Virus record (IMG/VR): IMGVR_UViG_3300024343_000137
Span: 1-21,282 of that record
Length of the DNA: 21,282 nt
Reading direction: 5' to 3' (one strand)
From: a virus
The notes beneath the pieces are model-generated. The model searched no databases, was not told the origin of the DNA, and saw only the letters and a list, made by a program, of their open reading frames with translations. Shown in pieces: positions 3,036 to 15,612 of the stretch (position 1 is the stretch's first letter; each line of letters opens with the position of its first letter). The position numbers were made by a program, and so were the translations under genes.

Positions 3036-3665
3036 ATGGAATACTACGACTACAACTTTAACACTTTACGAGGGACTAACTATGTACCTTATGGTAAGTT
3101 AGTACTAAAGACTGGACCAGCTACTACTGCAATATCTTTAGCAGAGGCTAAGGCTTTTCTAAGAGTTGATTCCGATTATGACGATGACGATAGTTATATC
3201 ACTTCGTTAATAGGTGTTGCTACTAATGTAGTAGAACAGTTTACTAGACGTAGATTAATCACACAAACATATAATATTTACTACGATGAGTTTCCTCCTT
3301 TTATGGATTTACAAGTAGGTAACGTAGCTAGTGTTACTCACGTTAAGTATTATGATACCGACAATACATTACAAACTCTTGATACATCTCAGTACGATGT
3401 TGATATAAGAGTAAAACCAGGAAGGATATACCAAGCTGAAGACGGTAACTTTCCAGACACTTACGAACGAGCTAACTCTGTAGAGGTTGAGTTTGTAGTA
3501 GGTAGTGCAGCTTCTGATGTTGAAGATGCTATAAAACAAGCTATGTATATTGTAATAGGAAGATATTACGAAAACCGACAAGACGTGGTAATGGGTACAC
3601 AAGTAAACGAATTGCCATTAATGGTTGAACATTTACTAACTCCTTACCGTTTGCTAGAACTATGA
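3036..3665 (+). CDS. Head-tail connector protein (HK97 gp6-like)
   Basis: A 209-residue protein directly after the capsid gene. It carries the gp6-like connector pattern: an N-terminal SLAEAKAFLRVD helix followed by YITSLIGVATNVVEQFTRRRLI, a beta-rich middle (VTHVKYYDTDNTLQTL, RPGRIY-like RVKPGRIY), and a C-terminal helix (EDAIKQAMYIVIGRYYENRQDV). Proteins of this type form the ring docked under the portal and start the head-tail interface. The ATG at 3036 is immediately downstream of the terminator T tract, so the usual ribosome entry region is the terminator itself. The gene overlaps the next by 4 bases. The N-terminal 25 residues (Tyr-rich, MEYYDYN) are longer than in many relatives. Confidence 0.85.
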   Translation: MEYYDYNFNTLRGTNYVPYGKLVLKTGPATTAISLAEAKAFLRVDSDYDDDDSYITSLIGVATNVVEQFTRRRLITQTYNIYYDEFPPFMDLQVGNVASVTHVKYYDTDNTLQTLDTSQYDVDIRVKPGRIYQAEDGNFPDTYERANSVEVEFVVGSAASDVEDAIKQAMYIVIGRYYENRQDVVMGTQVNELPLMVEHLLTPYRLLEL

Positions 3666-5071
3666 TAATAGGTAAACTAGATAGAAAACTAAAGCTCTAC
3701 ACACAAACTTACTCTACTAACGCTTATGGCGAGAGAGTGGTTTTAGATAATAGTTATGTAACTATATATGGAGACTTTGACTTTAAGTCTGGTAATACTA
3801 CCTATGATGCTGACGATTTAATTAACTCGCAGACTATAGAGTGCTTAATAAGATACCGAACTAACATAGGCACTACTCCACAATACTTTATTCAGAATGG
3901 CTCTACTAACTATTCTATAAAAGCAATAAAACAAGTAGGCAATAGAAAGGACGCAATGATACTTACGTTAGAGAAAAATGACGTAGTAGACTTATCTACA
4001 GTTGCTCCAAATCAATTTGTATTTACAATAGATACTGCTAACCTTTCTGATGGCTCTACACTTAACACACAATTTAAACTACCTACTGTAGCTTCTGGCT
4101 CTTATAATTGTACAGTACTATGGGGAGATGGTAGTAGTAGCACAATAACTAGCTACAATCAAGAAGAGATAACACACACTTATAGTAGTGCTGGAGAGTA
4201 TCAGATAAGCATAGAGGGAACTATACAAGGGTGGCAATTCAATAACACACAAGATAGGCTTAAAATACTTAACATCAGTAACTGGGGTACTTTAAATATA
4301 TCTACCAATAAAGCATTCTTTGGATGCTCTAATTTAGAAGCTAACGCTACTGACTATCCTACAATATCTACAGATAGTTTTGTAAGTATGTTTGAAGGTT
4401 GCACTAACTTTAATGGTGTGGTAGATGATTGGAATGTATCTGGTGTTTACTTCTTTGACAAAATGTTTAAAGACTGCTATTCTTTTGACCAACCGTTAAA
4501 TAGTTGGAATACGGAAACCTCTGGTAGTTACATTTCTGTTTTTGAAAACTGTTTAACATTCAATCAAGACTTAAGTAATTGGGAGGTAGAAGCAGTTATA
4601 GATATGAGTAGAATGTTCTATAACTGTGTACAGTTTAATGGAGATATATCTTCTTGGTCTATTCAAGATACTGAGGATATGAGTGAAATGCTCTTTAATT
4701 GTGATAGGTTTGACCAATCTTTAGCTGGTTGGAATATAAGCAACGTTGCTAACTTTACTAACTTTATGCAGAACGCTAGTGGCTTATCTAATGCTAACTA
4801 CGATGCAACTCTTATAGCTTGGGCAAGTGGACAAGTAGAGTCTGATATAAATATTAACTTTGGAGGTAGTCAATATACATTTAGTGCATTCTATTCTAAG
4901 CTATCATTAATAGAAGACGATGGATGGACTATCGTTGATGGTGGACTATTTGACCCAACACCAGCTCAGTACTTAAGTGTACTAAACGATAGAGTAGTAG
5001 CTGCTGGAGGCGTAATGGAAAACACTACAGATACACTAGCATTCTTAAATGAACTTAACGACATAACATAA
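3662..5071 (+). CDS. Head-tail adaptor fused to PKD-like domain and DUF285/BspA-type repeats
   Basis: A 469-residue chimera. Residues 1-107 look like a head-tail adaptor/head-closure protein (SPP1 gp16 / PF05521 type): short opening KLDRKLKLYTQTYSTNAYGE, a beta-barrel, and the ending YSIKAIKQVGNRKDAMILTL. Residues about 117-190 form a PKD-like domain (WGDGSS, then HTYSSAGEYQI). Residues about 215-367 hold repeats of pattern MFxxCxxFnxxlxxWnv with a 25-residue period, the DUF285 or bacterial surface 26-residue (BspA-like) family known from mycoplasma lipoproteins and Bacteroidota surface proteins. The C-terminus (435-469, QYLSVLNDRVVAAGGVMEN) is a short motif I believe recurs in other phage structural proteins. 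The gene overlaps both neighbours. Inference: the adaptor domain sits in the neck and the rest projects outward, perhaps binding surface glycans or proteins. The fusion is read directly; the display role is not proven. Confidence 0.8.
   Translation: MIIGKLDRKLKLYTQTYSTNAYGERVVLDNSYVTIYGDFDFKSGNTTYDADDLINSQTIECLIRYRTNIGTTPQYFIQNGSTNYSIKAIKQVGNRKDAMILTLEKNDVVDLSTVAPNQFVFTIDTANLSDGSTLNTQFKLPTVASGSYNCTVLWGDGSSSTITSYNQEEITHTYSSAGEYQISIEGTIQGWQFNNTQDRLKILNISNWGTLNISTNKAFFGCSNLEANATDYPTISTDSFVSMFEGCTNFNGVVDDWNVSGVYFFDKMFKDCYSFDQPLNSWNTETSGSYISVFENCLTFNQDLSNWEVEAVIDMSRMFYNCVQFNGDISSWSIQDTEDMSEMLFNCDRFDQSLAGWNISNVANFTNFMQNASGLSNANYDATLIAWASGQVESDININFGGSQYTFSAFYSKLSLIEDDGWTIVDGGLFDPTPAQYLSVLNDRVVAAGGVMENTTDTLAFLNELNDIT
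4388..4762 (+). repeat. Five 75-bp coding repeats (25-residue DUF285 units)
   Basis: Five successive units with exactly 25-residue spacing begin at residues 243, 268, 293, 318 and 343 of the adaptor fusion. Each has Met/Val-Phe or Met-Leu-Phe, then Cys at unit position 5, then F(N/D) and a Trp about ten residues later. A less perfect unit (FFGCSNLEA, near residue 219) precedes them. The DNA has diverged between units, so the repeats are kept at protein level rather than recently copied. Confidence 0.85.
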
Positions 5072-7398
5072 TGGCAGAGGGACTACTAGACAAAGCGAAT
5101 ATTATTTTAACTCCTACTGGTTATAAGGCTGGTACTATGTACAACGTAGCACCTATTGAGCAGCCATATGAGGACTTTGTATTCTCTAGAGCATCAGTTG
5201 CTAGTAGAGTTAATTCTAGTGGCTTAGTCGAGATGGTAGGTAGAACTTTAGGAAGTAACTTAGTACAGAATGGAGACTTTAGTGAGATAGGACCAGACTT
5301 AGTACAGAATGGTACTTTTGACTTAGGTAGTGAATTAAACGATTTAACTTGGAGTGCTTTTGGAGGTTGGAGTATAGTAGATGGAGTTGCATCTAATGAT
5401 GGAAGTGGAAGCACGATAGTTAATGAAATTTTAGAGATTGGTAAAACGTATAAAATAACAATACAATTATCTACTTACACAAGTGGTAATTTTTCTGTAT
5501 TTCTTGGTAGTGGCACAGAGTCATCTCAATTTAATGGAACAGATGAATTTACTTTTTACGGAGTATGTAGTGGAGATGCTTACGCAAGAGTGAAATCTTA
5601 TAGTGGTATTGGTTCTATAAATATACAAAACGTATCAGTTAAAGAAGTACCAGATTGGACTGTTACAGATAGTGATGCTAATAATTATGTAGAGTTTACA
5701 GATGGATTTGCTAGACTAAAGTTTTTAAATACAAGTCCAATTACAATGTTAAATAGTTCTTTAACATTACAAGCTAATAAAAATTATAAATTAATAGTTG
5801 ACGTACACGATGTAACTAGTGGTGCTATTAAGATTGACTCTGCTGGAATGTCTGAGCTTTTTAATACAGAAGGTGTTACAACAAGATATTTAAATCCAAC
5901 TGGTAATACTTCTTTAACTTTTTACAGAGCAACTGCTGATGTTGATATAACTTTAGCTAGTGTATCAGTACAAGAACTAGACCCTAATGACTATTGGATT
6001 TTAGGAACTGGTTGGAGTATAGGAGATGGTAAGGCTACAAGTAATGCTTCTGCTAATTCTTACTTAAATCAATCCGTATATACAATAGGTAATACATATA
6101 AATTAACATTTGAAGTTCTTGAAGGAACTATCGAACTTAGGTCTGCTCATTATAGTAGTGGTGTAGGTTATTATGCAACAGGAACACACACAGTATATGT
6201 AATTCCAACAACAGCAGACACTAACTTTTATGTTTACACAGGATTTGGTCAAACATCAATAACCAACATAGTAGTCCAAGAAGTAATAGACACCAACAAC
6301 ATTCCAAGAATAAACTATGATAGTAATGGAGAGAATGGGCATTGGTTGTTAGAGCCTACTTCTACTAATATATTACCTTATAGTGAGGACTTTAGTAATG
6401 TTACGGAAAATGCTTTAACAGTAACAGATAATGTAACAACAAGTCCACAAGGATTAAGTAATGCTGCAAGTATAATTCCAAATAACACAAATACAGTACA
6501 TTATTTAAGTTATCCAAATAATACAACTGGAACAGTAACGTTTTCTATTTACGCTAAATCTAACGGCTATAACTTTATATTTTTACACTTATACGATGGT
6601 AGTAATGGTAGAGCTTGGTTTAATTTAGAAAATGGACAAGTAGAAACAACTGATGCCTCTATTACATCTAAAATAGAATCGGTTGGTAGTGGTTGGTATA
6701 GATGTATTATAACAAGAGTTTTAACAGGTAGTTTAATTCAAGCAGACATTGCAGTTTCTAATGCAGATAATACAGTTGTATTTCCTGGAGATGGAACAAG
6801 TGGAGTTTATATATGGGGAGCACAACTAGAAGCCTTACCCTACGCTACATCATACATACCAACACTAACTGGAAGTACAGAGACAAGAGCTACAGAGACT
6901 GCAGCTGGTGCTGGTAGTGCTGACTTAATAAACTCAACAGAAGGAGTATTGTACGCAGAGATAGCTGCTTTGTCTAATGATGGTACAACAAGAAGAATAT
7001 CTTTGTCAGATGGAAGTATATCTAATAGAGTATCTTTAGAATTAGACGAAACATCTAATAAAATTAAAGCATTTATTTCAAATGGTGGAGTAAGTCAGAT
7101 ATTAGAATATACTGCAAGTGATTTAACTCAATACAATAAGATAGCCATTAAATATAAAGCTAATGATTTTGCTTTATGGTTAGGTGGAGTAGAAAGAGAC
7201 ACAGATACACTTGGCAGCGTTCCTATTGGATTAAATACACTTGAATTTGCACAAGGTAGTGGCGTACAAAATTTCTACGGTAAATGCAAAGAACTAGCAG
7301 TATTTGGAGAAGCATTATCAGATGATGAGTTAGAAAAATTAACTTCTTGGAGTTCATTTAACGCAATGGCTACAGATTTAGGATATACAATAGAATAA
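5071..7398 (+). CDS. Large fibre-like protein with jelly-roll (CBM-like) modules and LamG-like C-terminus
   Basis: A 775-residue Ser/Thr/Asn-rich protein. Residues 1-62 match the start of the next gene's product (FVFSRASVASRVNSSGLVEMVG). Residues about 63-409 contain three loosely similar modules of 100-130 residues, each opening with a GWSI..G.A or comparable strand and ending in a V(S)VxE(V/L) strand (NVSVKEV, SVSVQEL, IVVQEV), as in carbohydrate-binding CBM4/9-type jelly rolls. From about 410 on comes a phage fibre pattern (NIPRINYD, LLEPTSTN, YSEDFSN, GSGWYRC, YIWGAQLEALPYATSYIPT), then a concanavalin/LamG-like end (STEGVLYAEI, KIAIKYKANDFALWLGG, LSDDELEKLTSW). It probably binds surface sugars or decorates the virion. 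Head fibre, neck whisker and tail fibre are all possible; position among connector genes favours head or neck. Confidence 0.72.
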   Translation: MAEGLLDKANIILTPTGYKAGTMYNVAPIEQPYEDFVFSRASVASRVNSSGLVEMVGRTLGSNLVQNGDFSEIGPDLVQNGTFDLGSELNDLTWSAFGGWSIVDGVASNDGSGSTIVNEILEIGKTYKITIQLSTYTSGNFSVFLGSGTESSQFNGTDEFTFYGVCSGDAYARVKSYSGIGSINIQNVSVKEVPDWTVTDSDANNYVEFTDGFARLKFLNTSPITMLNSSLTLQANKNYKLIVDVHDVTSGAIKIDSAGMSELFNTEGVTTRYLNPTGNTSLTFYRATADVDITLASVSVQELDPNDYWILGTGWSIGDGKATSNASANSYLNQSVYTIGNTYKLTFEVLEGTIELRSAHYSSGVGYYATGTHTVYVIPTTADTNFYVYTGFGQTSITNIVVQEVIDTNNIPRINYDSNGENGHWLLEPTSTNILPYSEDFSNVTENALTVTDNVTTSPQGLSNAASIIPNNTNTVHYLSYPNNTTGTVTFSIYAKSNGYNFIFLHLYDGSNGRAWFNLENGQVETTDASITSKIESVGSGWYRCIITRVLTGSLIQADIAVSNADNTVVFPGDGTSGVYIWGAQLEALPYATSYIPTLTGSTETRATETAAGAGSADLINSTEGVLYAEIAALSNDGTTRRISLSDGSISNRVSLELDETSNKIKAFISNGGVSQILEYTASDLTQYNKIAIKYKANDFALWLGGVERDTDTLGSVPIGLNTLEFAQGSGVQNFYGKCKELAVFGEALSDDELEKLTSWSSFNAMATDLGYTIE
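5258..5312 (+). repeat. 16-bp direct repeat inside the fibre gene
   Basis: ACTTAGTACAGAATGG occurs at 5258-5273 and again, identical, at 5297-5312, 39 bases (13 codons) apart in the same frame. It encodes LVQNG twice (NLVQNGDF, DLVQNGTF). This marks a recent in-frame duplication, or recombination between module boundaries, at the point where the CBM-like modules begin. Confidence 0.85.
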
Positions 7399-7401
7399 GA
7401 T

Positions 7402-8622
7402 ATGGCAGCGACTATTAAATACGGAGACACTAAATGGGCTGTAAAAGACGGCAATACTTTAGGGTATAATGATGAGAATAGTTTTAAGCCAGTACCTTTT
7501 GACTTTACTAGAAATAGCATAGGAACAAGAGTAGATAGAAATGGCTTAATAGAGACTATAGGAAACAATATACCTAGAATAGACTTTACAGATAATACTG
7601 ATGGTCATTTATTACTTGAACCACAGAGTACAAACTCATTGACTTATAGTGAGGATTTTAGTAATACTTATTGGAATCCAAATGATATTAGTGTAGAAAG
7701 CAACGCTGCCACTTCTCCTAATGGTGCTACAAACGCATTTAAAATTACTATAACTGATGTTACTCCTTATCTTGGCAATTTAAACATATCTTTAATTGTA
7801 GGAAATACCTACACTCTTAGTTGTTTTGTTAAAAAAGGTACTAATAGATGGGTAAGATTAGCTAGTGTTTCAAGTGCTAGTACAGGTGCTTGGTTTGACT
7901 TAGATAATGGGGTAGTAGGTACTGTTAATTCTACATCTGCAACTATTGAAGATTATGGTGATGGTTGGTATAGAATTACAAACACACTAACCTCTATAAG
8001 TGGTTCTAACGATGTATTTCTTGGTCTTTCAGGTGTTGATGGTAGCACAAGTGGTTCTAGTGTAATTGGAAACAATGTATTCGCTTGGGGTTTTCAAGTA
8101 GAAGCCTTATCATACCCAACTTCTTACATACCTACTAATGGCTCAACGGTTACTAGAGCATCAGAAACTTGCACCAACGCTGGTAATAGTACATTAATAA
8201 ATAGTACAGAGGGTGTGTTATATGCAGAAATAAGTAGTTTTAAAAATGGTGGAATAGGAGATAGAACAATATCTATTTCAGATGGAAGTACACAAAACGC
8301 TATACAATTATTTCTACACAATACAGCAAATAGAATAAACTTTAGATTAAGAAGTGGTGGTAGTTTAGATGTAAACATTTCAGACTTTACATTTGAACAA
8401 AATCAAATAAATAAAATTGCTTGTAAGTATAAATCGGGAGATTACGCTTTGTGGATTAATGGTGAAGAAAGAGCTACATCTACAAATAGTAGTTTACCAT
8501 CAGGATTATCTGTATTAGCGTTTGATGATGGCTCATTATACGAATTTTACGGTAAAGTAAAAGCAGTAACAGTATATAACACAGCTCTAACAGATGCTGA
8601 ACTAACAGAACTAACAAGCTAA
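7402..8622 (+). CDS. Fibre-like LamG/concanavalin-fold protein, paralogue of the preceding gene
   Basis: A 406-residue protein whose whole length aligns with the two ends of the 775-residue neighbour. Shared landmarks in order are DFTRNSIGTRVDRNGLIETIG (compare FSRASVASRVNSSGLVEMVG), NIPRIDF, LLLEPQSTN, TYSEDFSN, GDGWYRI, FAWGFQVEALSYPTSYIPT, LINSTEGVLYAEI, INKIACKYKSGDYALWING, and ALTDAELTEL. It lacks the three inserted jelly-roll modules, so it looks like the basic architecture, and the upstream gene like a copy with an insertion. The likely role is virion surface decoration or glycan binding. It starts 3 bases after the previous stop. Phage proteins with the LLEPQ(S/R)TN...YSEDFS pattern are often annotated as fibre or spike proteins; I cannot tell head from tail placement. 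Confidence 0.74.
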   Translation: MAATIKYGDTKWAVKDGNTLGYNDENSFKPVPFDFTRNSIGTRVDRNGLIETIGNNIPRIDFTDNTDGHLLLEPQSTNSLTYSEDFSNTYWNPNDISVESNAATSPNGATNAFKITITDVTPYLGNLNISLIVGNTYTLSCFVKKGTNRWVRLASVSSASTGAWFDLDNGVVGTVNSTSATIEDYGDGWYRITNTLTSISGSNDVFLGLSGVDGSTSGSSVIGNNVFAWGFQVEALSYPTSYIPTNGSTVTRASETCTNAGNSTLINSTEGVLYAEISSFKNGGIGDRTISISDGSTQNAIQLFLHNTANRINFRLRSGGSLDVNISDFTFEQNQINKIACKYKSGDYALWINGEERATSTNSSLPSGLSVLAFDDGSLYEFYGKVKAVTVYNTALTDAELTELTS

Positions 8623-8625
8623 GAT

Positions 8626-8835
8626 ATGTCTAAACTAAGAATGACAGAAATATGCTATCCAGAAGTAAAGAGCTACTTTATTGTATGGAATGATAAAAGA
8701 GAGATAGTTTCTTGGGGTGCATTAGAAACCTACCAATGTATAGAAACTAAGTGGGAAGACGTAGATATGTACACAAGTGAGTTAGACTGGGTAAATGTAT
8801 TAATAGATAACGGTATAAATCCTTTTGACTACTAA
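8626..8835 (+). CDS. Small conserved phage protein of unknown function (69 aa)
   Basis: An acidic, aromatic-rich 69-residue protein with pattern VWNDKREIVSWGALE, TKWEDVDMYTSELDWVNVLIDNGINPF. I recognise the style from small proteins that sit directly after fibre genes in marine and flavobacterial phages, but no function is known to me. It starts 3 bases after the fibre gene and its stop overlaps the ATG of the gp10-like gene, so it belongs to the same transcript. A fibre assembly helper or a small decoration protein are guesses from position only. No membrane segment or signal peptide is seen. Confidence 0.7.
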   Translation: MSKLRMTEICYPEVKSYFIVWNDKREIVSWGALETYQCIETKWEDVDMYTSELDWVNVLIDNGINPFDY

Positions 8836-9263
8836 TGATAGTATCAGCTAAAATAGATGAGAGAGAGCTTAAGTCTTTGATTAAGGACTTAGAGAGCCTT
8901 AATATGTCTGATAGCAAGAATAAAACTATCTTGAGACAAGGTATGCGAAAAGCTGCAAAGCCTATACAACAAGAGTTAAAAGACTTAGTACCTAAGAAGA
9001 GTGGTCAGCTAAGAAAGTCTCTAGCTGTAATAAATGGTAAGAACAGAAGAGGTAGACCACCAGCAGTATATATTGGACCAAGAGTTAAAGGTGCTTATGC
9101 TGATATGAAAAAGACTGGATTCTACTTTTACTTTTTAGAGTATGGATTTAGAGGTATTCCAGGACTAAGAATGTTAGATAGAGCTGCAATGAATAAAGGT
9201 AGTCAAGCACAAAATGACGTAATAAACCAAGTAAAAAAGCTCATTGATAAAAGAATGAAGTAA
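8835..9263 (+). CDS. HK97 gp10-like head-tail joining/tail completion protein
   Basis: A 142-residue basic protein matching the HK97 gp10-like family: an N-terminal helix (DERELKSLIKDLESL), KAAKPIQQELKDLVPKKSGQLRKSL (the hallmark P(K)xxGxLRkSl), a VYIGPRVKGAY strand, then YFYFLEYGFRGIPGLRMLDRAA, corresponding to the (A)HLxExGt...PfLrpA pattern. These proteins act at the head-tail interface in siphoviruses. It overlaps the preceding stop and the following start by one base each, a sign of tight translational coupling. Identity is secure at the family level. Confidence 0.88.
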   Translation: MIVSAKIDERELKSLIKDLESLNMSDSKNKTILRQGMRKAAKPIQQELKDLVPKKSGQLRKSLAVINGKNRRGRPPAVYIGPRVKGAYADMKKTGFYFYFLEYGFRGIPGLRMLDRAAMNKGSQAQNDVINQVKKLIDKRMK

Positions 9264-9679
9264 TGGAGATAGGTAAAGTAGTATATAATATTTTAGGAAA
9301 CGATGGCAATGTAAGTCCATTAGTAACTACTGATGGCAATAAGCGTATATTCCCATCTAGATATAACTTTCCTACACAAAGTAAGTTGCCTTATATTACT
9401 TATCAAATGGTAGCAGATATACCTAACAACACTAAGAACGGTGTAAGTGAATACGACTATGTAACTGTTCAGATAAGTATGTACCATAATAACTACGCTG
9501 ACTTAGTAGCTTTAGCTGGACACGTTAGAACGGCTCTAGACTACGTTAGTGGCACTTATAGTGGTGTAGTAGTAGACAAGATATTCTATGAGTCTCAAGA
9601 CGAGCTATACGATGATAGTGCTGGAAGTTTAGGCTTTTACGGTATAAGACAAGATTACAGATTTAACATAAATAGATAG
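9263..9679 (+). CDS. Tail terminator / tail completion protein (DUF3168-like)
   Basis: A 138-residue protein with the features of the DUF3168 or gp11-type tail terminator family: an N-terminal helix (IGKVVYNIL), RIFPSRYNFPTQSKLPYITYQMV (the conserved P..a..PyvvY segment), EYDYVTVQISMYHNNYADLVALAGHVRTAL (strand plus helix), and a final strand GFYGIRQDYRF. Such proteins cap the tail tube hexamer and join it to the head. It follows the gp10-like gene and precedes the tube gene, its usual place. Confidence 0.85.
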   Translation: MEIGKVVYNILGNDGNVSPLVTTDGNKRIFPSRYNFPTQSKLPYITYQMVADIPNNTKNGVSEYDYVTVQISMYHNNYADLVALAGHVRTALDYVSGTYSGVVVDKIFYESQDELYDDSAGSLGFYGIRQDYRFNINR

Positions 9680-9681
9680 AT

Positions 9682-9858
9682 ATGTATAAAATTAAATTAA
9701 AAAAAGATATTGAGTTTCGAGGTGTAGAATACATCAAAGGCGAGACTTATGAGGTTGGTAGAAAAGAGCGTAATCATTTTGCTAATGAAGACGCTATTGC
9801 AAAGCCGACAAAGAAGAAATCTAAGGAAGTCGAAACTTCAAAAGATTTAGATAACTAG
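9682..9858 (+). CDS. Small basic protein of unknown function (58 aa)
   Basis: The ATG at 9682 is 2 bases after the tail terminator stop, and the frame runs 58 codons to TAG at 9856-9858. Residues 1-35 look like a small beta fold (MYKIKLKKDIEFRGVEYIKGETYEVGR); residues 36-58 are a charged tail (KPTKKKSKEVETSKDLDN). Short proteins with this opening are common between tail terminator and tube genes of phages, but I know no assigned function. Spacing and codon use match the neighbours. Confidence 0.72.
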   Translation: MYKIKLKKDIEFRGVEYIKGETYEVGRKERNHFANEDAIAKPTKKKSKEVETSKDLDN

Positions 9859-9882
9859 TTATAAATTTTAAATAAAAGAGAA

Positions 9883-10314
9883 ATGATTTTTAATGGAACG
9901 GATTTAATCCTAAAAGTAAGTCCTTCGGATGGAGGAGCTGATGCGAAGCTAATGCACTCGCAAAATGTAAGTTTAAGTATTAACGTAGACCCTATAGACA
10001 TCTCTAACAAAGATTCTGCTGGTTTCAGAGACATCATTGGAGGTCAGAAGAGCTTTAGCCTTAGTGCTGATGGTCTTATGGACTTTAATCCAGCGACTGC
10101 TGCTGATACTGAAGTAGATGAGTTGACTACACAAATGTTAGCAAGAACTGCTGTAACATTTACATTCACTCTATCTTCTACTGCTGCTGGAGACTATTTC
10201 TATAGTGGCTCTGGATTTGTTACAAGTCTAGAAATTTCTGCTGGTACTGAAGATGCACCTACTTACTCTTGTTCAATCGAGGGAACTGGAGCATTAACTG
10301 TTACAACTGTATAA
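9883..10314 (+). CDS. Major tail (tube) protein
   Basis: A 143-residue protein that fits the TP901-1/lambda-type tail tube family: a beta-rich start (NGTDLILKVSPSDGG), SLSINVDPIDISNKDSAGFRDIIGGQKSFSLSADGLMDF (the conserved IdvT.kds.g..e...G..s.sls..g pattern) and the end VTSLEISAGTEDAPTYSCSIEGTGAL. It stacks as hexameric rings to form the tube. A 24-base A-rich leader (aaataaaagagaaatg) precedes the ATG, the usual style of a strongly translated Bacteroidota gene. It is followed by a large RNA structure (10318-10380) and the chaperone gene, as in other siphoviruses. Confidence 0.9.
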   Translation: MIFNGTDLILKVSPSDGGADAKLMHSQNVSLSINVDPIDISNKDSAGFRDIIGGQKSFSLSADGLMDFNPATAADTEVDELTTQMLARTAVTFTFTLSSTAAGDYFYSGSGFVTSLEISAGTEDAPTYSCSIEGTGALTVTTV

Positions 10315-11056: not shown

Positions 11057-12677
11057 GAAGAACTTAAGTATTAAACTATCGTTAAACGATAAGCAGTTTC
11101 AGAGTAACCTCAAGAAGTCGATGAGGTCAATGAAAAAGTTTGGTAATAATATGAAGTCTTTAGGACGTACTATTTCTACTGGACTTACTTTACCTATTTT
11201 AGCTTTTGGAGCTGCAAGTGTTAAAGCATTTGATGAACAGATAAAAGCAGAGACATCGTTAAGAACTGCACTAGGAAACAATGCAGAAGCATTTGCTAAC
11301 TTAGCTGAACAAGCTAGGGAATTACAAAAGGTTACAATATTTGGAGATGAGGCTACTTTACAAGCTCAATCATTTCTAGCTCAGTTAGGACTTAATGAAC
11401 AAGCTATCTTGCGACTAACTCCATTGATTCAAGACTTCGCTACTGCTCAAGGTATTCAATTAACAGATGCTGCTAAATTAGTTGCTAAGTCAGTAGGCTC
11501 TAGTACCAATGCTTTATCTCGTTACGGTATAACTATTGAGGGTGCAGTAGGAGAGCAAGAAAGACTACAGAGTGCAGTAGATGCTCTTACAGTTGCTTTT
11601 GGAGGTCAAGCTGAGGCAATAGCTAAAGAAGGTCTAGGACCGTTACAACAGCTTAAAAACGAATTAGGAGATGTATCTGAGAAGTTTGGAGAGATTATAC
11701 TAGAATTTATAGACCCTTTAACAAAAGGTCTACAAAAAGTATCAAAGGCATTAAGCAATCTAACAGAAGAACAAAAAAAGAACATAGTAAAATATGGAGC
11801 TATAATAGCTGCTGTAGGTCCTTTGTTAATTGTGTTTGGTAGTTTAGTAACTACATTGACTACATTAATACCTTTAGCTATAAGTTTTGTAGCTGCAATT
11901 AATCCAATAACTATTGCAATAGCTGCTGCTGGTGCAGCTGTTTTATATCTTGTCAATAGGTTTAGAGACTTACAAAAAGAGTACGAAGAATATAATGAAG
12001 TAGTAGGAGATTTTGAGCCTATTGCTCCATTTGTACCTACTACAACGCCTACAACGCCTACAACACCTACTATTGAAAGGAGTACAATACCAGAAAGAAT
12101 AGAGCCAATAAAGGCATTAAAGGTAGAGTTACAAAGCATTCCAGATGTTTTAGATAAAATTGATGTTTCATTTAGCGAGACATTTACTAAAATGGAAAGA
12201 ATGGCTATGATGGTTTCTAGCACTATTAGAAATGCTTTTTTATCTACTGCTGATGCTTCAGAACAAAGTAGCAAACAAATGATAGCTTCAGCTAAAAATG
12301 CAGCAAGAGAACAAATTAAAATAGCTTTAGCTACAGCAGTAGCTGAACAAATGAAATCAATTTTTGCTTCTGTACCTTTTCCATTTAATTTAGCTTTAGC
12401 TGCTGGAGCTGGTAGTATTGTAGGAAGTTTATTCTCTAAAGTAATTCCAGCATTTGCTGAAGGTGGATTAGTTAGTGGAGCTACTTTAGGTATGGTAGGA
12501 GAAGGACCAGGAACTTCTATGAGCAATCCAGAAGTGATAGCTCCTTTAAATAAATTAAAATCAATGATAGGAGGAGGAGGAGATGGTGTACAAGTATTTG
12601 GTACAATAAGTGGAGCTGATATATTACTAAGCTCAGATAGAGCAAAAAACAATAGAAACAGAACAAGAGGATACTAA
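11049..12677 (+). CDS. Tail tape measure protein
   Basis: A 542-residue protein. Residues 1-45 are basic (LKKSMRSMKKFGNNMKSLGR). Residues about 60-240 are helical, with the typical phage pattern SFLAQLGLNEQ...L.PLIQDFATAQG, LTDAAKLVAKSVGSSTNALSRYGI and GPLQQLKNELGDVSEKFGEII. Residues about 250-302 are strongly hydrophobic (two or three membrane-like segments), then comes a Pro/Thr linker (residues 330-341, TTTPTTPTTPT) and a Gly-rich end with the EGGLVSGATLGMVGEGP motif found at the C-terminus of many tape measures. It sets tail length and enters the host membrane at DNA injection. At about 1.5 angstrom per residue, a general rule of thumb, the tail would be roughly 80 nm. It overlaps the frameshift product upstream and shares its last base with the next ATG. 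Confidence 0.92.
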   Translation: MAEKNLSIKLSLNDKQFQSNLKKSMRSMKKFGNNMKSLGRTISTGLTLPILAFGAASVKAFDEQIKAETSLRTALGNNAEAFANLAEQARELQKVTIFGDEATLQAQSFLAQLGLNEQAILRLTPLIQDFATAQGIQLTDAAKLVAKSVGSSTNALSRYGITIEGAVGEQERLQSAVDALTVAFGGQAEAIAKEGLGPLQQLKNELGDVSEKFGEIILEFIDPLTKGLQKVSKALSNLTEEQKKNIVKYGAIIAAVGPLLIVFGSLVTTLTTLIPLAISFVAAINPITIAIAAAGAAVLYLVNRFRDLQKEYEEYNEVVGDFEPIAPFVPTTTPTTPTTPTIERSTIPERIEPIKALKVELQSIPDVLDKIDVSFSETFTKMERMAMMVSSTIRNAFLSTADASEQSSKQMIASAKNAAREQIKIALATAVAEQMKSIFASVPFPFNLALAAGAGSIVGSLFSKVIPAFAEGGLVSGATLGMVGEGPGTSMSNPEVIAPLNKLKSMIGGGGDGVQVFGTISGADILLSSDRAKNNRNRTRGY

Positions 12678-14812
12678 TGGCTAGACTAAAAAGATTAGAG
12701 AGTAGTTTTCAAAGTGATAATGGCACTTATTACCGTATAGAAGTATATGATAATAATGCTTCTGCACCTACATTATACACTCCAGACTTAGGACCAGATG
12801 GATTTACTTTGACATATCAGACTAACGATAACGATAGATTTACTGGACTAATACCTTCTGAGGTTAAATTTGATATAAATGTAACAATAGGAGGAGAGCA
12901 AGGTGTTGTAGATGATATTAGAACAAGTGCTTATGGAGATTGGGATATTGGTATATATATAAGTGATGACGATGTTACCTATAATAGATACTGGTTTGGT
13001 ATATTGCTAAATGATATATCTCCAGAGGCTGATGCTTCTTACCCTACTAGAATAACTCTAACTGCTGTATGTGGACTAGCACCTTTAAAAGATATTCCAT
13101 TCAATAGAAATATTGGTTATGAAACACCATCTTCATATCAAACTATCAACTATTTTAGACTATCCTTTGTCAATCAAATTAGTACTGCTGACAATTACTT
13201 TGGAGCTAACGATTTATTTATAGCTACTTTTGTAGATTGGACTACTGATACAATGACTAGACAAGTACAAAGAGACCCTTTGAATGCTAGTAGATTTAAC
13301 TTTATGGCATTTGTAGATATTGCTGACGATGGTAGCAGAAACTATAAAACTGCATTTGAGTTATTAGATAGCATATGCAAATCTTGGGGAATGAGATGTT
13401 TTATGTCAAATGGTAGATGGAATCTAGTACAAGTAAATCATTATGCAGACTGGAAAACTCCTTCGACTCAGTACTATCGTTATTATAAAAAAGGTAGCAG
13501 TAATTCTTATGCTAGTGGCAGTACATCAGTCGTATTTACAGAAGGATTTAACATAAAAAGATATGGTGGCAAGTTTGACTATTTACCTATTTTAAGAAGT
13601 GTAGAAACTAACTACAATCACTTACAGCCGTTCGATATGCCATTCTTCTACTATAACATAGATGGCGATACTTCGACACAATATCAGACTACACTTAACG
13701 AGATACCTATATGGAATGGCTACCAATGGAACAACTCTAACTATACTGGTGCAGCTTATTCTATTAACAACGCTCCTACTGATAAATTAATAATCTCTTT
13801 AGGTAATGTAAATGCTTTAGCTGGTAGTAGTATTTTATTAAATAGAGACTTTACAACTAGATACAGTCAAGGTATTTCTTTTTCTGATGTAAGTGGCTCA
13901 CAGCAAAAGGTAAGAACAGATTTATTTGCTAGATTTAAATTAGTAGGAGATTCTGCTACTTATTATTTTCCTTTATCTACTGCATTAGCTATGGATTGGA
14001 CAACTACTGACCAATTTACATTAACTGATACTATACCAGCAACTTATTTAAACAATACTGTAGGGTCTTTAGAGCCAGCAATTAATATAAATATACAAAC
14101 TAATGAGCTACCAGTTGATGGAGATTTATTCTTCGAGATATTCGCTGAATGCTACTATCAACTTTATGCTAATGCTTTAGCTATATTAGGAGAGATAGAA
14201 ATAACTGAAGCTACAACGACTACTCAAGAAGATAATATCTTAGTATTTTCTGCTCCAGAAACAAGTTCAGAGCAAGGAATAAAGTACCTATTAGATAATG
14301 AAGTACTATCTGCTAAGTTCTTTAGAGCATTTAACGCTCCTGGAGGAACTACTATTGAAAATGGTGTAAAGTTTGAGATACCAGAATTATTTATTGGAAC
14401 TGGACCTACGAGTGGAGCAGTAGGTAGATTAGAGACATACAACTATACTACTACTTCTTGGGAAAACGGTACTAACGCTACTTGGAAAGCATATGGCTCT
14501 GGTACTGGTGTAGAGTTTACACAGCTTTTAGTAGAGGAAGTATTAAAAGGTCAAGCTGAAGGAGCTAAGGTATTTAACGGTAGTTTAAAAACAGTATCTG
14601 GATTTATACCACGTTATCTTAATGGAATAGAAATAGATGGCTCTCCATATATACCTTATCAATGTTCATTTAATGCTAATGAAGATACTTGGTCTGGAGA
14701 GTGGTATGGAATAGAATTAAGTACTAACACACAAAATGTAGAAGTAAACATAACATCATTTGACGTTTTTGATGGTCAAGAAGCAACTGGTGGAGGAGAT
14801 ATATTTTTCTAA
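12677..14812 (+). CDS. Large tail protein, probably baseplate/tail tip
   Basis: A 711-residue, beta-rich protein directly after the tape measure, where distal tail and tail-associated proteins usually lie. The N-terminal 200 residues (LKRLESSFQSDNGTYYRIEV, DGFTLTYQTNDNDRFTGLIPSEVKFDI, WFGILLNDISPE, ITLTAVCGLAPLKDIPF) resemble a distal-tail or baseplate hub beta-sandwich. The middle (KTAFELLDSICKSWGMRCFMSNGRWNLVQVN) matches a pattern I associate with tail proteins of flavobacterial phages. The C-terminus is Gly-rich (DGQEATGGGDIFF). No peptidase or glycosidase motif is visible. Its role in the tail tip is inferred from size and place; a catalytic function cannot be excluded. Confidence 0.7.
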   Translation: MARLKRLESSFQSDNGTYYRIEVYDNNASAPTLYTPDLGPDGFTLTYQTNDNDRFTGLIPSEVKFDINVTIGGEQGVVDDIRTSAYGDWDIGIYISDDDVTYNRYWFGILLNDISPEADASYPTRITLTAVCGLAPLKDIPFNRNIGYETPSSYQTINYFRLSFVNQISTADNYFGANDLFIATFVDWTTDTMTRQVQRDPLNASRFNFMAFVDIADDGSRNYKTAFELLDSICKSWGMRCFMSNGRWNLVQVNHYADWKTPSTQYYRYYKKGSSNSYASGSTSVVFTEGFNIKRYGGKFDYLPILRSVETNYNHLQPFDMPFFYYNIDGDTSTQYQTTLNEIPIWNGYQWNNSNYTGAAYSINNAPTDKLIISLGNVNALAGSSILLNRDFTTRYSQGISFSDVSGSQQKVRTDLFARFKLVGDSATYYFPLSTALAMDWTTTDQFTLTDTIPATYLNNTVGSLEPAININIQTNELPVDGDLFFEIFAECYYQLYANALAILGEIEITEATTTTQEDNILVFSAPETSSEQGIKYLLDNEVLSAKFFRAFNAPGGTTIENGVKFEIPELFIGTGPTSGAVGRLETYNYTTTSWENGTNATWKAYGSGTGVEFTQLLVEEVLKGQAEGAKVFNGSLKTVSGFIPRYLNGIEIDGSPYIPYQCSFNANEDTWSGEWYGIELSTNTQNVEVNITSFDVFDGQEATGGGDIFF

Positions 14813-14814
14813 TT

Positions 14815-15612
14815 ATGGCAACATTATCAAATTATTTAAGAGGGGAATGTGTAGCAGTAGTACAAAACGATACTACTAGCCTTACATTAAGTTCAGTAAC
14901 TATTATACCTTCTACTGGCTCAGATAGATTATTAGTGTCTGGAGATGTGATAATAATAGTATGTGCTGATACTGGCTTTCCTATACAAATTACACTTAAT
15001 TCAGATGTAACATATACTGGAGCAAAACTTAACTTTGCATCTACTACCGTTAAGCAGTTAATACCAGCTGGTAGTATAGTTATACTAGACAAAGACTACA
15101 AGTATAGGTCTTTATTTAGAGACTATACTATAGTAACTCATAAACTATATGAGACTGGTAATACTCACGGTAATACAAATCTTATAGACCCACAATACCC
15201 ATCTAACATAACAGTAAATGCTGGTACAACTTGGAGTGATGGGGATACTTTAGCTAACTCATATATAAATAACAGTATATTTAGAAGTCCACACGAAGGA
15301 TTTAAGTTAGAAAGAGTAACGTGGGATGTTAATACAGATGCTCCTCCCGAACGCAACTGTGAGTTTTCTTTATGGGCTAAGCCTATAACTGAGAACGGTA
15401 ATACAGCTACCGATATAGAACTGATAGACACTTTTGCAATAACATCTCAAAACGACTCTAACTATGTATTTAATAGAGACATAGTACAGACTGGTAGTTA
15501 TGATAACAATGTATGCTTGATACCAGCATTTAGAAAAACTGGTAGAGCATCAAGCTCAGATAATTTTTACGCAACTTTAACGCTTTTAATAAGCACAGAC
15601 CCTAGACAATAA
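14815..15612 (+). CDS. Tail fibre / receptor-binding-like structural protein
   Basis: A 265-residue beta-rich protein two bases after the tail tip gene. Residues 1-110 form a small domain rich in short strands (GDVIIIVCADTGFPIQITLNSDV, LIPAGSIVILDKDYKYRSLFRDYT); residues 120-265 may be a jelly-roll head (GFKLERVTWDVNT, EFSLWAKPITENG, NVCLIPAFRKTGRASSSDNFYATLTLL). It sits between the tail tip gene and the lysis cassette, the usual place of receptor-binding or short fibre proteins. No recognised domain name can be given with confidence. The stop overlaps the next gene's ATG (TAATG). Confidence 0.6.
   Translation: MATLSNYLRGECVAVVQNDTTSLTLSSVTIIPSTGSDRLLVSGDVIIIVCADTGFPIQITLNSDVTYTGAKLNFASTTVKQLIPAGSIVILDKDYKYRSLFRDYTIVTHKLYETGNTHGNTNLIDPQYPSNITVNAGTTWSDGDTLANSYINNSIFRSPHEGFKLERVTWDVNTDAPPERNCEFSLWAKPITENGNTATDIELIDTFAITSQNDSNYVFNRDIVQTGSYDNNVCLIPAFRKTGRASSSDNFYATLTLLISTDPRQ

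What the first reader, a model, noticed from the sequence alone, without database searches (positions are those of the whole stretch)
3662..5071. Head-tail adaptor fused to PKD and DUF285/BspA repeats
A core neck protein of about 107 residues is continued into a PKD-like domain and at least five 25-residue repeats of a family best known from bacterial and mycoplasma surface proteins. The fusion would place 12 (or 6) copies of a repeat-rich adhesin at the neck. I know of no standard head-tail adaptor with this extension. It may be a virion surface display or host-binding device gained from bacterial surface proteins.
Basis: partly seen in the sequence, partly recalled or inferred. Interest (0 to 1): 0.72.

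Follow-up and report, generated by a model that had tools for sequence, protein, structure and literature searches.

The report
Phage neck protein carrying variable adhesin
In a widespread group of uncultured marine viruses of bacteria, the small ring protein that seals the virus head has grown a long, fast-changing sticky arm, and a neighbouring gene adds a second, even more variable sticky protein, which suggests a removable gripping device mounted at the virus's neck rather than at its tail tip.

Summary
Window 3662-5071 encodes one 469-residue protein: a head-closure/stopper core (Hc1, PF05521, residues 1-~110), a PKD domain (~119-185), DUF285/BspA 25-residue repeats (~233-375) and a helical tail (429-469). 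The core is the stopper (six copies in solved necks), not the adaptor; the adaptor (Ad1) is the gene upstream.

It is a recurrent device. Of 108 non-redundant viral contigs with a complete Hc1 gene, 68 have the fusion with tail plus a downstream lectin-like gene (gA), 16 have the fusion without tail and without gA, and 24 have a bare 112-residue Hc1 followed directly by Ne1. One contig (L100) shows a clean 2.8-kb loss of the whole cassette from a closely related operon, so the extension is dispensable. Variation is graded: Hc1 and PKD nearly fixed, repeats variable at sites phased to the 25-residue unit, gA hypervariable beyond a conserved 60-residue N terminus.

Best explanation: an optional neck-mounted adhesin, with the stopper as covalent anchor, PKD as spacer, repeats as a diversifying binding face and tail as a probable dock for gA. 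Neck adhesins (lactococcal NPS, whiskers) are known; building one onto the stopper appears to be a new variant. Virion location and binding are inferred.

The parts
3662..3991 (+). Hc1 head-closure (stopper) core, residues 1-110
   Evidence: PF05521 30.8 bits and phrog_25; Foldseek to T1, RcGTA, Pam3 and SPP1 stoppers; entropy 0.21 bits, dN/dS 0.05; stands alone as a 112-aa gene in 24 relatives
3992..4231 (+). PKD domain, residues 111-190 (WGDG motif)
   Evidence: PF00801 23.9-24.4 bits, cut-off 23.5; strands 118-189 in model; dN/dS 0.07
4358..4786 (+). DUF285/BspA 25-residue repeats, residues 233-375, with hypervariable positions 7, 9, 10, 11, 13 and 16 of each unit
   Evidence: PF03382 128 bits; pLDDT ~90; entropy autocorrelation 0.51 at lag 25, permutation p 2e-4; pN/pS ~1.1 at these positions against 0.26-0.36 elsewhere in the repeat, in the well-populated divergence bins
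4787..4945 (+). C-terminal cap of the portable module, residues 376-428 (NYDATLIAW...WTIVDGG)
   Evidence: shared with phage KZY1 and the 462-kb phage LR756500
4946..5068 (+). helical tail, residues 429-469 (predicted helices 434-447 and 456-466), probable dock for gA
   Evidence: present in 68/68 loci with gA, absent in 16/16 fused loci without gA; helices in model; only 2-4 independent contrasts on the tree
5071..7398 (+). gA: modular adhesin, conserved 60-residue N terminus then hypervariable beta-sandwich modules
   Evidence: phrog_5939 tail protein; 0.89-0.97 conservation over residues 1-60, lengths 326-800 aa; Foldseek to Pa193/E217 tail fibres, laminin LG and CBM40; LamG Pfam hits in relatives
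7402..8622 (+). gB: second gA-like lectin gene (tandem paralogue)
   Evidence: Laminin_G_3 45 bits, phrog_5939, 45% identical to gA; seen in only part of the family
8626..8835 (+). g69: small cassette protein of unknown role, present only with the extension
   Evidence: no Pfam/PHROG hit; found with the fusion, absent in all 24 bare loci; its last 9 bases remain in the L100 deletion scar
3036..3665 (+). Ad1 head-tail adaptor, upstream neighbour
   Evidence: PF05135 41 bits, phrog_442/phrog_40
8835..9263 (+). Ne1 neck/tail-completion protein, directly downstream of bare Hc1 in relatives
   Evidence: PF04883, phrog_5; order
9263..9679 (+). tail terminator
   Evidence: PF11367, phrog_347

Best explanation
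The protein is a working stopper (Hc1) that also serves as a covalent anchor for an optional adhesin at the neck. Six Hc1 cores form the ring under the adaptor and close the DNA channel. Each core's C terminus continues, on the outside of the neck, through a PKD spacer into a DUF285/BspA repeat solenoid whose one face is diversified to bind a changing ligand, probably a host-surface glycan or protein. The helical tail docks the conserved N terminus of gA, a chain of swappable carbohydrate-binding-like modules, adding reach and a second variable specificity. The device is accessory: it aids reversible attachment or particle retention, while the tail tip (genes at 12677-15612, present in all types) does the committed binding. 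Shown: domains, operon, the three states, clean loss, graded and phased variation. Inferred: six copies, outward position, gA docking, binding role.
For: Stopper identity by sequence and fold, with the Hc1 core under the strongest purifying selection. Operon order identical in bare and fused genomes except for the cassette. Three discrete states in 108 loci. L100: 94.5% nucleotide identity to L053 up to Hc1 codon 110, then resumption in the last bases of g69, leaving a 112-aa Hc1. Bare contigs of 19-26.5 kb hold no copy of the extension or gA elsewhere. Against phages with an Hc1 core identical to the window's: PKD 100%, repeats 87-97%, tail 88-100%, gA 1-60 95-100%, rest of gA 42-48%, g69/Ne1/terminator 96-100%: conserved base, variable tips. 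Hypervariable sites repeat every 25 residues with pN/pS ~1.1. gA modules resemble phage tail fibres, LG domains and CBMs. The module occurs on other carriers in other phages. Stopper termini reach external decoration proteins in phage 812 (PMC12886913).
Against: No virion proteomics, micrograph or binding data; no cultured member and no host found. The tail-gA association rests on only 2 well-supported (up to 4) independent contrasts. gA could attach to another neck protein. The N terminus of gA is unstructured in the monomer model (pLDDT ~33), so docking is untested. Diversified sites were picked by variability, so the pN/pS contrast is partly circular; their phasing is not. In cyanophage A-1(L) a neck-fibre CBM did not bind the host (PMC10966104).
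Confidence: 0.62

Rival explanations
1. [quoted passage not shown]
For: The R4C adaptor carries an Ig-like domain thought to serve local stability, not adsorption (PMC10276861); 812 stopper has an external beta-sandwich domain (PMC12886913); the PKD part is nearly invariant.
Against: Repeat sites phased to the 25-residue unit are hypervariable, the reverse of what a fixed virion contact predicts; the whole extension is lost cleanly in L100; 24 relatives do without it.
Confidence: 0.16
2. Attachment to something other than the host cell, such as algal or gel polysaccharide, particles or other virions (a retention device), using the same anatomy.
For: PKD/Ig-like adhesins of T4 Hoc and gut phages bind mucus or epithelium and aid retention (PMC13370021); gA modules resemble general CBMs and LG domains; the cassette is optional.
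Against: Strong local diversification of repeats and gA between near-identical phages fits a fast-changing host surface better than a bulk polysaccharide.
Confidence: 0.15
3. Only the gene fusion is real: Hc1 is released by proteolysis or made as a short product, and the C-terminal part acts elsewhere or not at all.
For: Processing cannot be seen from sequence; bare Hc1 of 112 aa works in relatives.
Against: The intact reading frame is conserved in 95 contigs, with purifying selection through PKD (dN/dS 0.07); the window has no in-frame ATG between codons 101 and 240 and neither have 27 of 76 fused ORFs in all; no conserved slippery site was seen by eye at the junction.
Confidence: 0.07

Closest known systems
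SPP1 gp16 / Hc1 stopper family (PF05521; Virfam Type 1 neck)
   Same: core fold, gene position Ad1-Hc1-Ne1-terminator, ~110 residues, most conserved stretch around the channel-closing loop region
   Different: the members examined here outside this group end after the core; here ~360 residues of PKD, BspA repeats and helical tail follow
Neck passage structure (NPS) of lactococcal 936/P335 phages, e.g. TP901-1
   Same: works like it: optional neck-mounted carbohydrate-binding device, conserved base and variable ends, non-essential
   Different: NPS is a separate protein with a BppU-like N-terminal ring and trimeric coiled coil; here the anchor is a covalent extension of the stopper, and gA lacks a detectable BppU domain
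Staphylococcus phage 812 stopper and neck decoration/whisker proteins
   Same: stopper with an extra external beta-sandwich domain; its termini contact decoration proteins that probably hold neck whiskers
   Different: separate decoration proteins; no LRR arm on the stopper reported in the passages read
R4C adaptor with Ig-like attachment domain
   Same: neck-ring protein of a marine siphophage fused to an accessory beta-sandwich domain
   Different: adaptor rather than stopper, N-terminal rather than C-terminal, proposed for capsid contact
DUF285/BspA surface proteins (bacteria) and phage BspA proteins (KZY1, PAU gp103, LR756500)
   Same: PKD + 25-residue repeats + WTIxDGG cap as one module (KZY1, LR756500)
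   Different: stand-alone or on other anchors, not on a neck ring protein
phrog_10356, 852-position 'virion structural protein'
   Same: its first ~108 positions match this Hc1 (up to 45 bits), so another stopper with a long extension probably exists
   Different: only the Hc1 part matched; the extension gave no match to PKD/DUF285 of this protein, and its phage could not be located here

Membership tests
Hc1 head-closure/stopper (PF05521, SPP1 gp16) | profile match over the curated cut-off | tested here: met
   30.8 bits against 25, residues 1-104
Hc1 head-closure/stopper (PF05521, SPP1 gp16) | stopper fold | tested here: met
   top PDB matches are T1, RcGTA, Pam3, Douge and SPP1 stopper/neck proteins, probability ~1.0, TMt 0.5-0.59; E-values only 0.01-0.1
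Hc1 head-closure/stopper (PF05521, SPP1 gp16) | hexamer under the adaptor, closes channel | not testable with these tools
   copy number taken from PMC9701221, PMC12886913, PMC10276861
Virfam Type 1 neck (Ad1-Hc1-Ne1-Tc1) | gene order and components | tested here: met
   Ad1 3036, Hc1 3662, Ne1 8835, terminator 9263; definition from PMC4362835. The Hc1-Ne1 gap is filled by gA, gB and g69 here and empty in bare relatives
DUF285 / BspA-type repeats (PF03382) | profile match and 25-residue period | tested here: met
   128 bits; period 25
PKD domain (PF00801) | profile match over cut-off and beta-sandwich | tested here: met
   23.9 bits against 23.5, marginal; strands in model
Lactococcal-type neck passage structure (NPS) | BppU-like N-terminal domain forming a collar | tested here: not met
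   no BppU-type Pfam hit in gA or the extension at E<=10; the N terminus of gA is too poorly modelled for a fold test
Lactococcal-type neck passage structure (NPS) | optional carbohydrate-binding modules at the neck with variable ends | tested here: inconclusive
   optional and variable: shown; CBM-like fold; location and binding not shown
Diversity-generating retroelement target | changes confined to adenines of a template, other codon positions constant | tested here: not met
   variable codons change at all positions (TAT, GAA, AGT, AGA, CAA, TTT ...); a reverse transcriptase gene was not searched for
Repeat-shuffled receptors (lamprey-VLR-like) | repeat segments exchanged between registers | tested here: not met
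   no identical segment shared between registers in 61 sequences

The most novel reading that the evidence does not exclude
Tailed phages can turn the stopper ring itself into a six-armed, interchangeable display platform: a covalent LRR arm whose one face evolves like a recognition surface, plus a docked, swappable lectin chain, gained and lost as a single cassette, giving a second host-recognition system at the neck that is independent of the tail tip.
Probability: 0.45. Interest if true: 0.75.

Novelty: new variant of a known kind. Interest (0 to 1): 0.6.

Why it matters
Host recognition in siphophages is mostly sought at the tail tip. If a core neck protein carries a diversifying arm and docks a hypervariable lectin, host-range prediction from tail genes misses a second determinant. 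The family gives a ready natural experiment: closely related viruses with the whole cassette, with the arm alone, and with neither, so the question of what neck appendages do becomes testable. The stopper's tolerance of a ~360-residue C-terminal load also makes it a candidate display site, and the portable PKD-DUF285 module shows one adhesin unit on several different phage carriers and in bacterial surface proteins.

Tried and rejected
Contig chimera or chance ORF: rejected, 95 contigs carry it. Diversity-generating retroelement: codon pattern does not fit. Repeat shuffling between registers: none found. Independent internal start for the C-terminal part: no conserved ATG near the junction. 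Extension relocated elsewhere in bare genomes: not found. Host or prophage search in GTDB genomes with the Hc1/fusion alignment and with the major capsid alignment: nothing. Closest isolates by capsid, portal, Ad1 or Hc1: only distant. Nonlabens phage P12024S was examined because of a gA-like gene; PF05521 does not ring in it, so it shows no comparable neck fusion. Identity of phrog_10356 phages: tried nine flavobacterial phages, no match. PDB by sequence profile: no useful hit. The top Foldseek hits of gA to Cry/Vip3 proteins have TM-scores of only ~0.1 and reflect shared beta-sandwich/jelly-roll modules; no toxin function is suggested.

Full report
WHAT IS THERE. The ORF 3662-5071 is one uninterrupted 469-residue frame, its ATG overlapping the Ad1 stop (ATGA) and its TAA overlapping the next ATG (TAATG). 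The start overlap is seen in 76 of 76 fused relatives measured, and every end context listed is a TAATG junction. Residues 1-104 match Phage_HCP (PF05521), 119-185 PKD, ~233-375 DUF285; PHROGs call the core head closure Hc1. The AlphaFold2 model (mean pLDDT 79) has the repeats at ~90 and two C-terminal helices. Its N-terminal part aligns best in the PDB with solved stoppers, including T1, RcGTA, Pam3 and SPP1 gp16. The neighbours are portal, protease, major capsid protein, Ad1, Hc1, gA, gB, g69, Ne1, terminator, major tail protein, tape measure and two further genes at the usual tail-tip position. So this is a Virfam Type 1 neck (PMC4362835), and the core is the stopper, not the adaptor. In SPP1, R4C, 812 and T1 the stopper is a hexamer (PMC9701221, PMC10276861, PMC12886913, PMC11945409), so six copies are expected.

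THE FAMILY. Viral-contig scans with the whole protein, the core alone and a core alignment gave 120 non-redundant contigs. Of 108 whose Hc1 gene ends inside the contig with sequence beyond it, 68 have fusion + tail + gA, 16 have the fusion ending at residue ~429-436 with g69 following directly, and 24 have bare Hc1 of 112 aa followed directly by Ne1 (one of the 24 is cut at its 5' end); no other combination occurs. g69 was found with the fusion in 67 loci; in the other 17 it was not found, and the listing shows such contigs ending inside gA or gB. Distantly related phages with annotated necks (OP947159, MW202777) have Hc1 of 116-117 aa followed directly by Ne1, and the four flavobacterial isolates in which PF05521 rang have open frames of 109-136 aa, the bare type.

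LOSS OF THE CASSETTE. L100 is 94.5% identical to L053 over 4.4 kb up to Hc1 codon 110; the match then resumes 2.8 kb further on, at the last bases of g69. The last codons of the L100 Hc1 (GAGCAATGA) equal the end of g69 in sister loci (PEQ-stop), so L100 reads as a deletion that removed extension, gA and g69 in one step and left a 112-aa Hc1 in frame. On a tree of Ad1+Hc1 DNA, bare against fused needs two changes, and L100 sits inside the fused clade. The other bare clade (21 rows) may be primitive or secondary; the root is not known. Bare contigs of 19-26.5 kb contain no copy of the extension or gA (L100 itself is only 7.4 kb), and the three read through have the same operon, tail-tip genes included. 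The extension is therefore dispensable and separable from head closure.

VARIATION. Among 61 fused sequences, entropy and dN/dS rise from the core (0.21 bits; 0.05) and PKD (0.25; 0.07) to the repeats (0.96; 0.34), then fall in the tail (0.39; 0.22). The most variable sites recur every 25 residues (autocorrelation 0.51 at lag 25, permutation p 2e-4), at unit positions 7, 9, 10, 11, 13 and 16. In a solenoid, equal positions stack on one face, so this is what a diversified binding face would look like; the mapping onto coordinates was not done. These positions have pN/pS ~1.1 against ~0.3 for the rest in the large divergence bins (0.3-0.76 in the small ones); they were chosen for variability, so this contrast is partly circular. 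Codons change at all three positions, unlike a retroelement target, and no segment is shared between registers. Against phages with an identical core, identity runs Hc1 100, PKD 100, repeats 87-97, tail 88-100, gA 1-60 95-100, rest of gA 42-48, gB 38-54, g69 99-100, Ne1 96-99%. gA keeps its first 60 residues and several linkers while its modules and length (326-800 aa) change. Its model is a string of beta-sandwiches that match phage tail fibres (Pa193, E217), laminin LG and CBM40; the N-terminal 93 residues are not modelled with confidence.

ORIGIN OF THE MODULE. Residues 119-428 behave as one portable unit. It occurs as a stand-alone 384-aa protein next to a large fibre-like gene in a 462-kb uncultured phage (36% identity, E 5e-56), behind a different N terminus in a Zobellviridae phage, and inside a large surface protein on a Salinibacter plasmid. 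Transfer between phages and bacterial surface genes is plausible; direction was not tested.

HOW IT MOST LIKELY WORKS. Shown: a conserved stopper core, an optional cassette, clean loss, and graded, phased variation. From known structures: a hexameric stopper ring, with stopper termini contacting external decoration proteins in 812 (PMC12886913). Inferred: the C terminus exits outward, six LRR arms surround the neck, and the tail docks gA. The last step rests on perfect co-occurrence (68/68 against 0/16) but only two well-supported independent contrasts, up to four in all, so it is a hypothesis. The likely role is accessory adhesion. Lactococcal NPS is the closest functional parallel: present in about two thirds of 936 phages and absent from the rest, reported non-essential in TP901-1, with a CBM that binds host cells weakly (PMC6669499, PMC10747895). 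A caution: the neck-fibre CBM of A-1(L) did not bind its host (PMC10966104), and the R4C adaptor's Ig-like domain is thought to be structural (PMC10276861).

NOVELTY. Neck appendages and extra domains on neck proteins are known. In the open-access papers searched and the PDB I found no stopper that is itself extended into a PKD-BspA arm paired with a lectin gene; the library lacks most subscription papers. An 852-position PHROG whose first 108 positions match this Hc1 suggests at least one other extended stopper. I therefore call it a new variant of a known kind. No host was found; phosphatase homologues in Flavobacterium and Elizabethkingia phages (the single best hit is a cyanophage) and the low G+C make marine Flavobacteriia the best guess only.

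Noticed in passing
window 5071-8622: gA and gB are tandem paralogues (45% identical); in relatives there is often a single gene, so the lectin locus duplicates and contracts.
   Followed up: partly
window 8626-8835: The 69-aa g69 has no known family but travels with the stopper extension and is missing from all bare loci; possible assembly factor or connector.
   Followed up: partly
L039:4112-5311: Major capsid protein only 39% identical to the window's although its Hc1 core is 86% identical: head and neck modules recombine.
   Followed up: no
L175 (orientation-corrected) 7868-10195: Tail-tip protein replaced by a 775-aa version with 23% partial identity while neighbours stay conserved: the tail tip is also a swapping hotspot.
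   Followed up: no
L054:10223-10649: The major tail protein frame is split into two ORFs in this contig (frameshift or sequencing error).
   Followed up: no
Ne1 position, e.g. L119, L120, L116: Ne1 occurs in several diverged forms (142, 158-159, 176-177 aa) independent of Hc1 type.
   Followed up: no
BFVD entries A0A6J5NZE0 and A0A6J5M0K7: Two 193-195 aa 'SPP1 head-tail adaptor' proteins of uncultured phages align over ~205 columns with the fusion model, perhaps Hc1 with a shorter extra domain.
   Followed up: no
L169:65-2950: A 961-aa repetitive fibre-like protein precedes the stand-alone PKD-DUF285 protein in the 462-kb phage LR756500.
   Followed up: no
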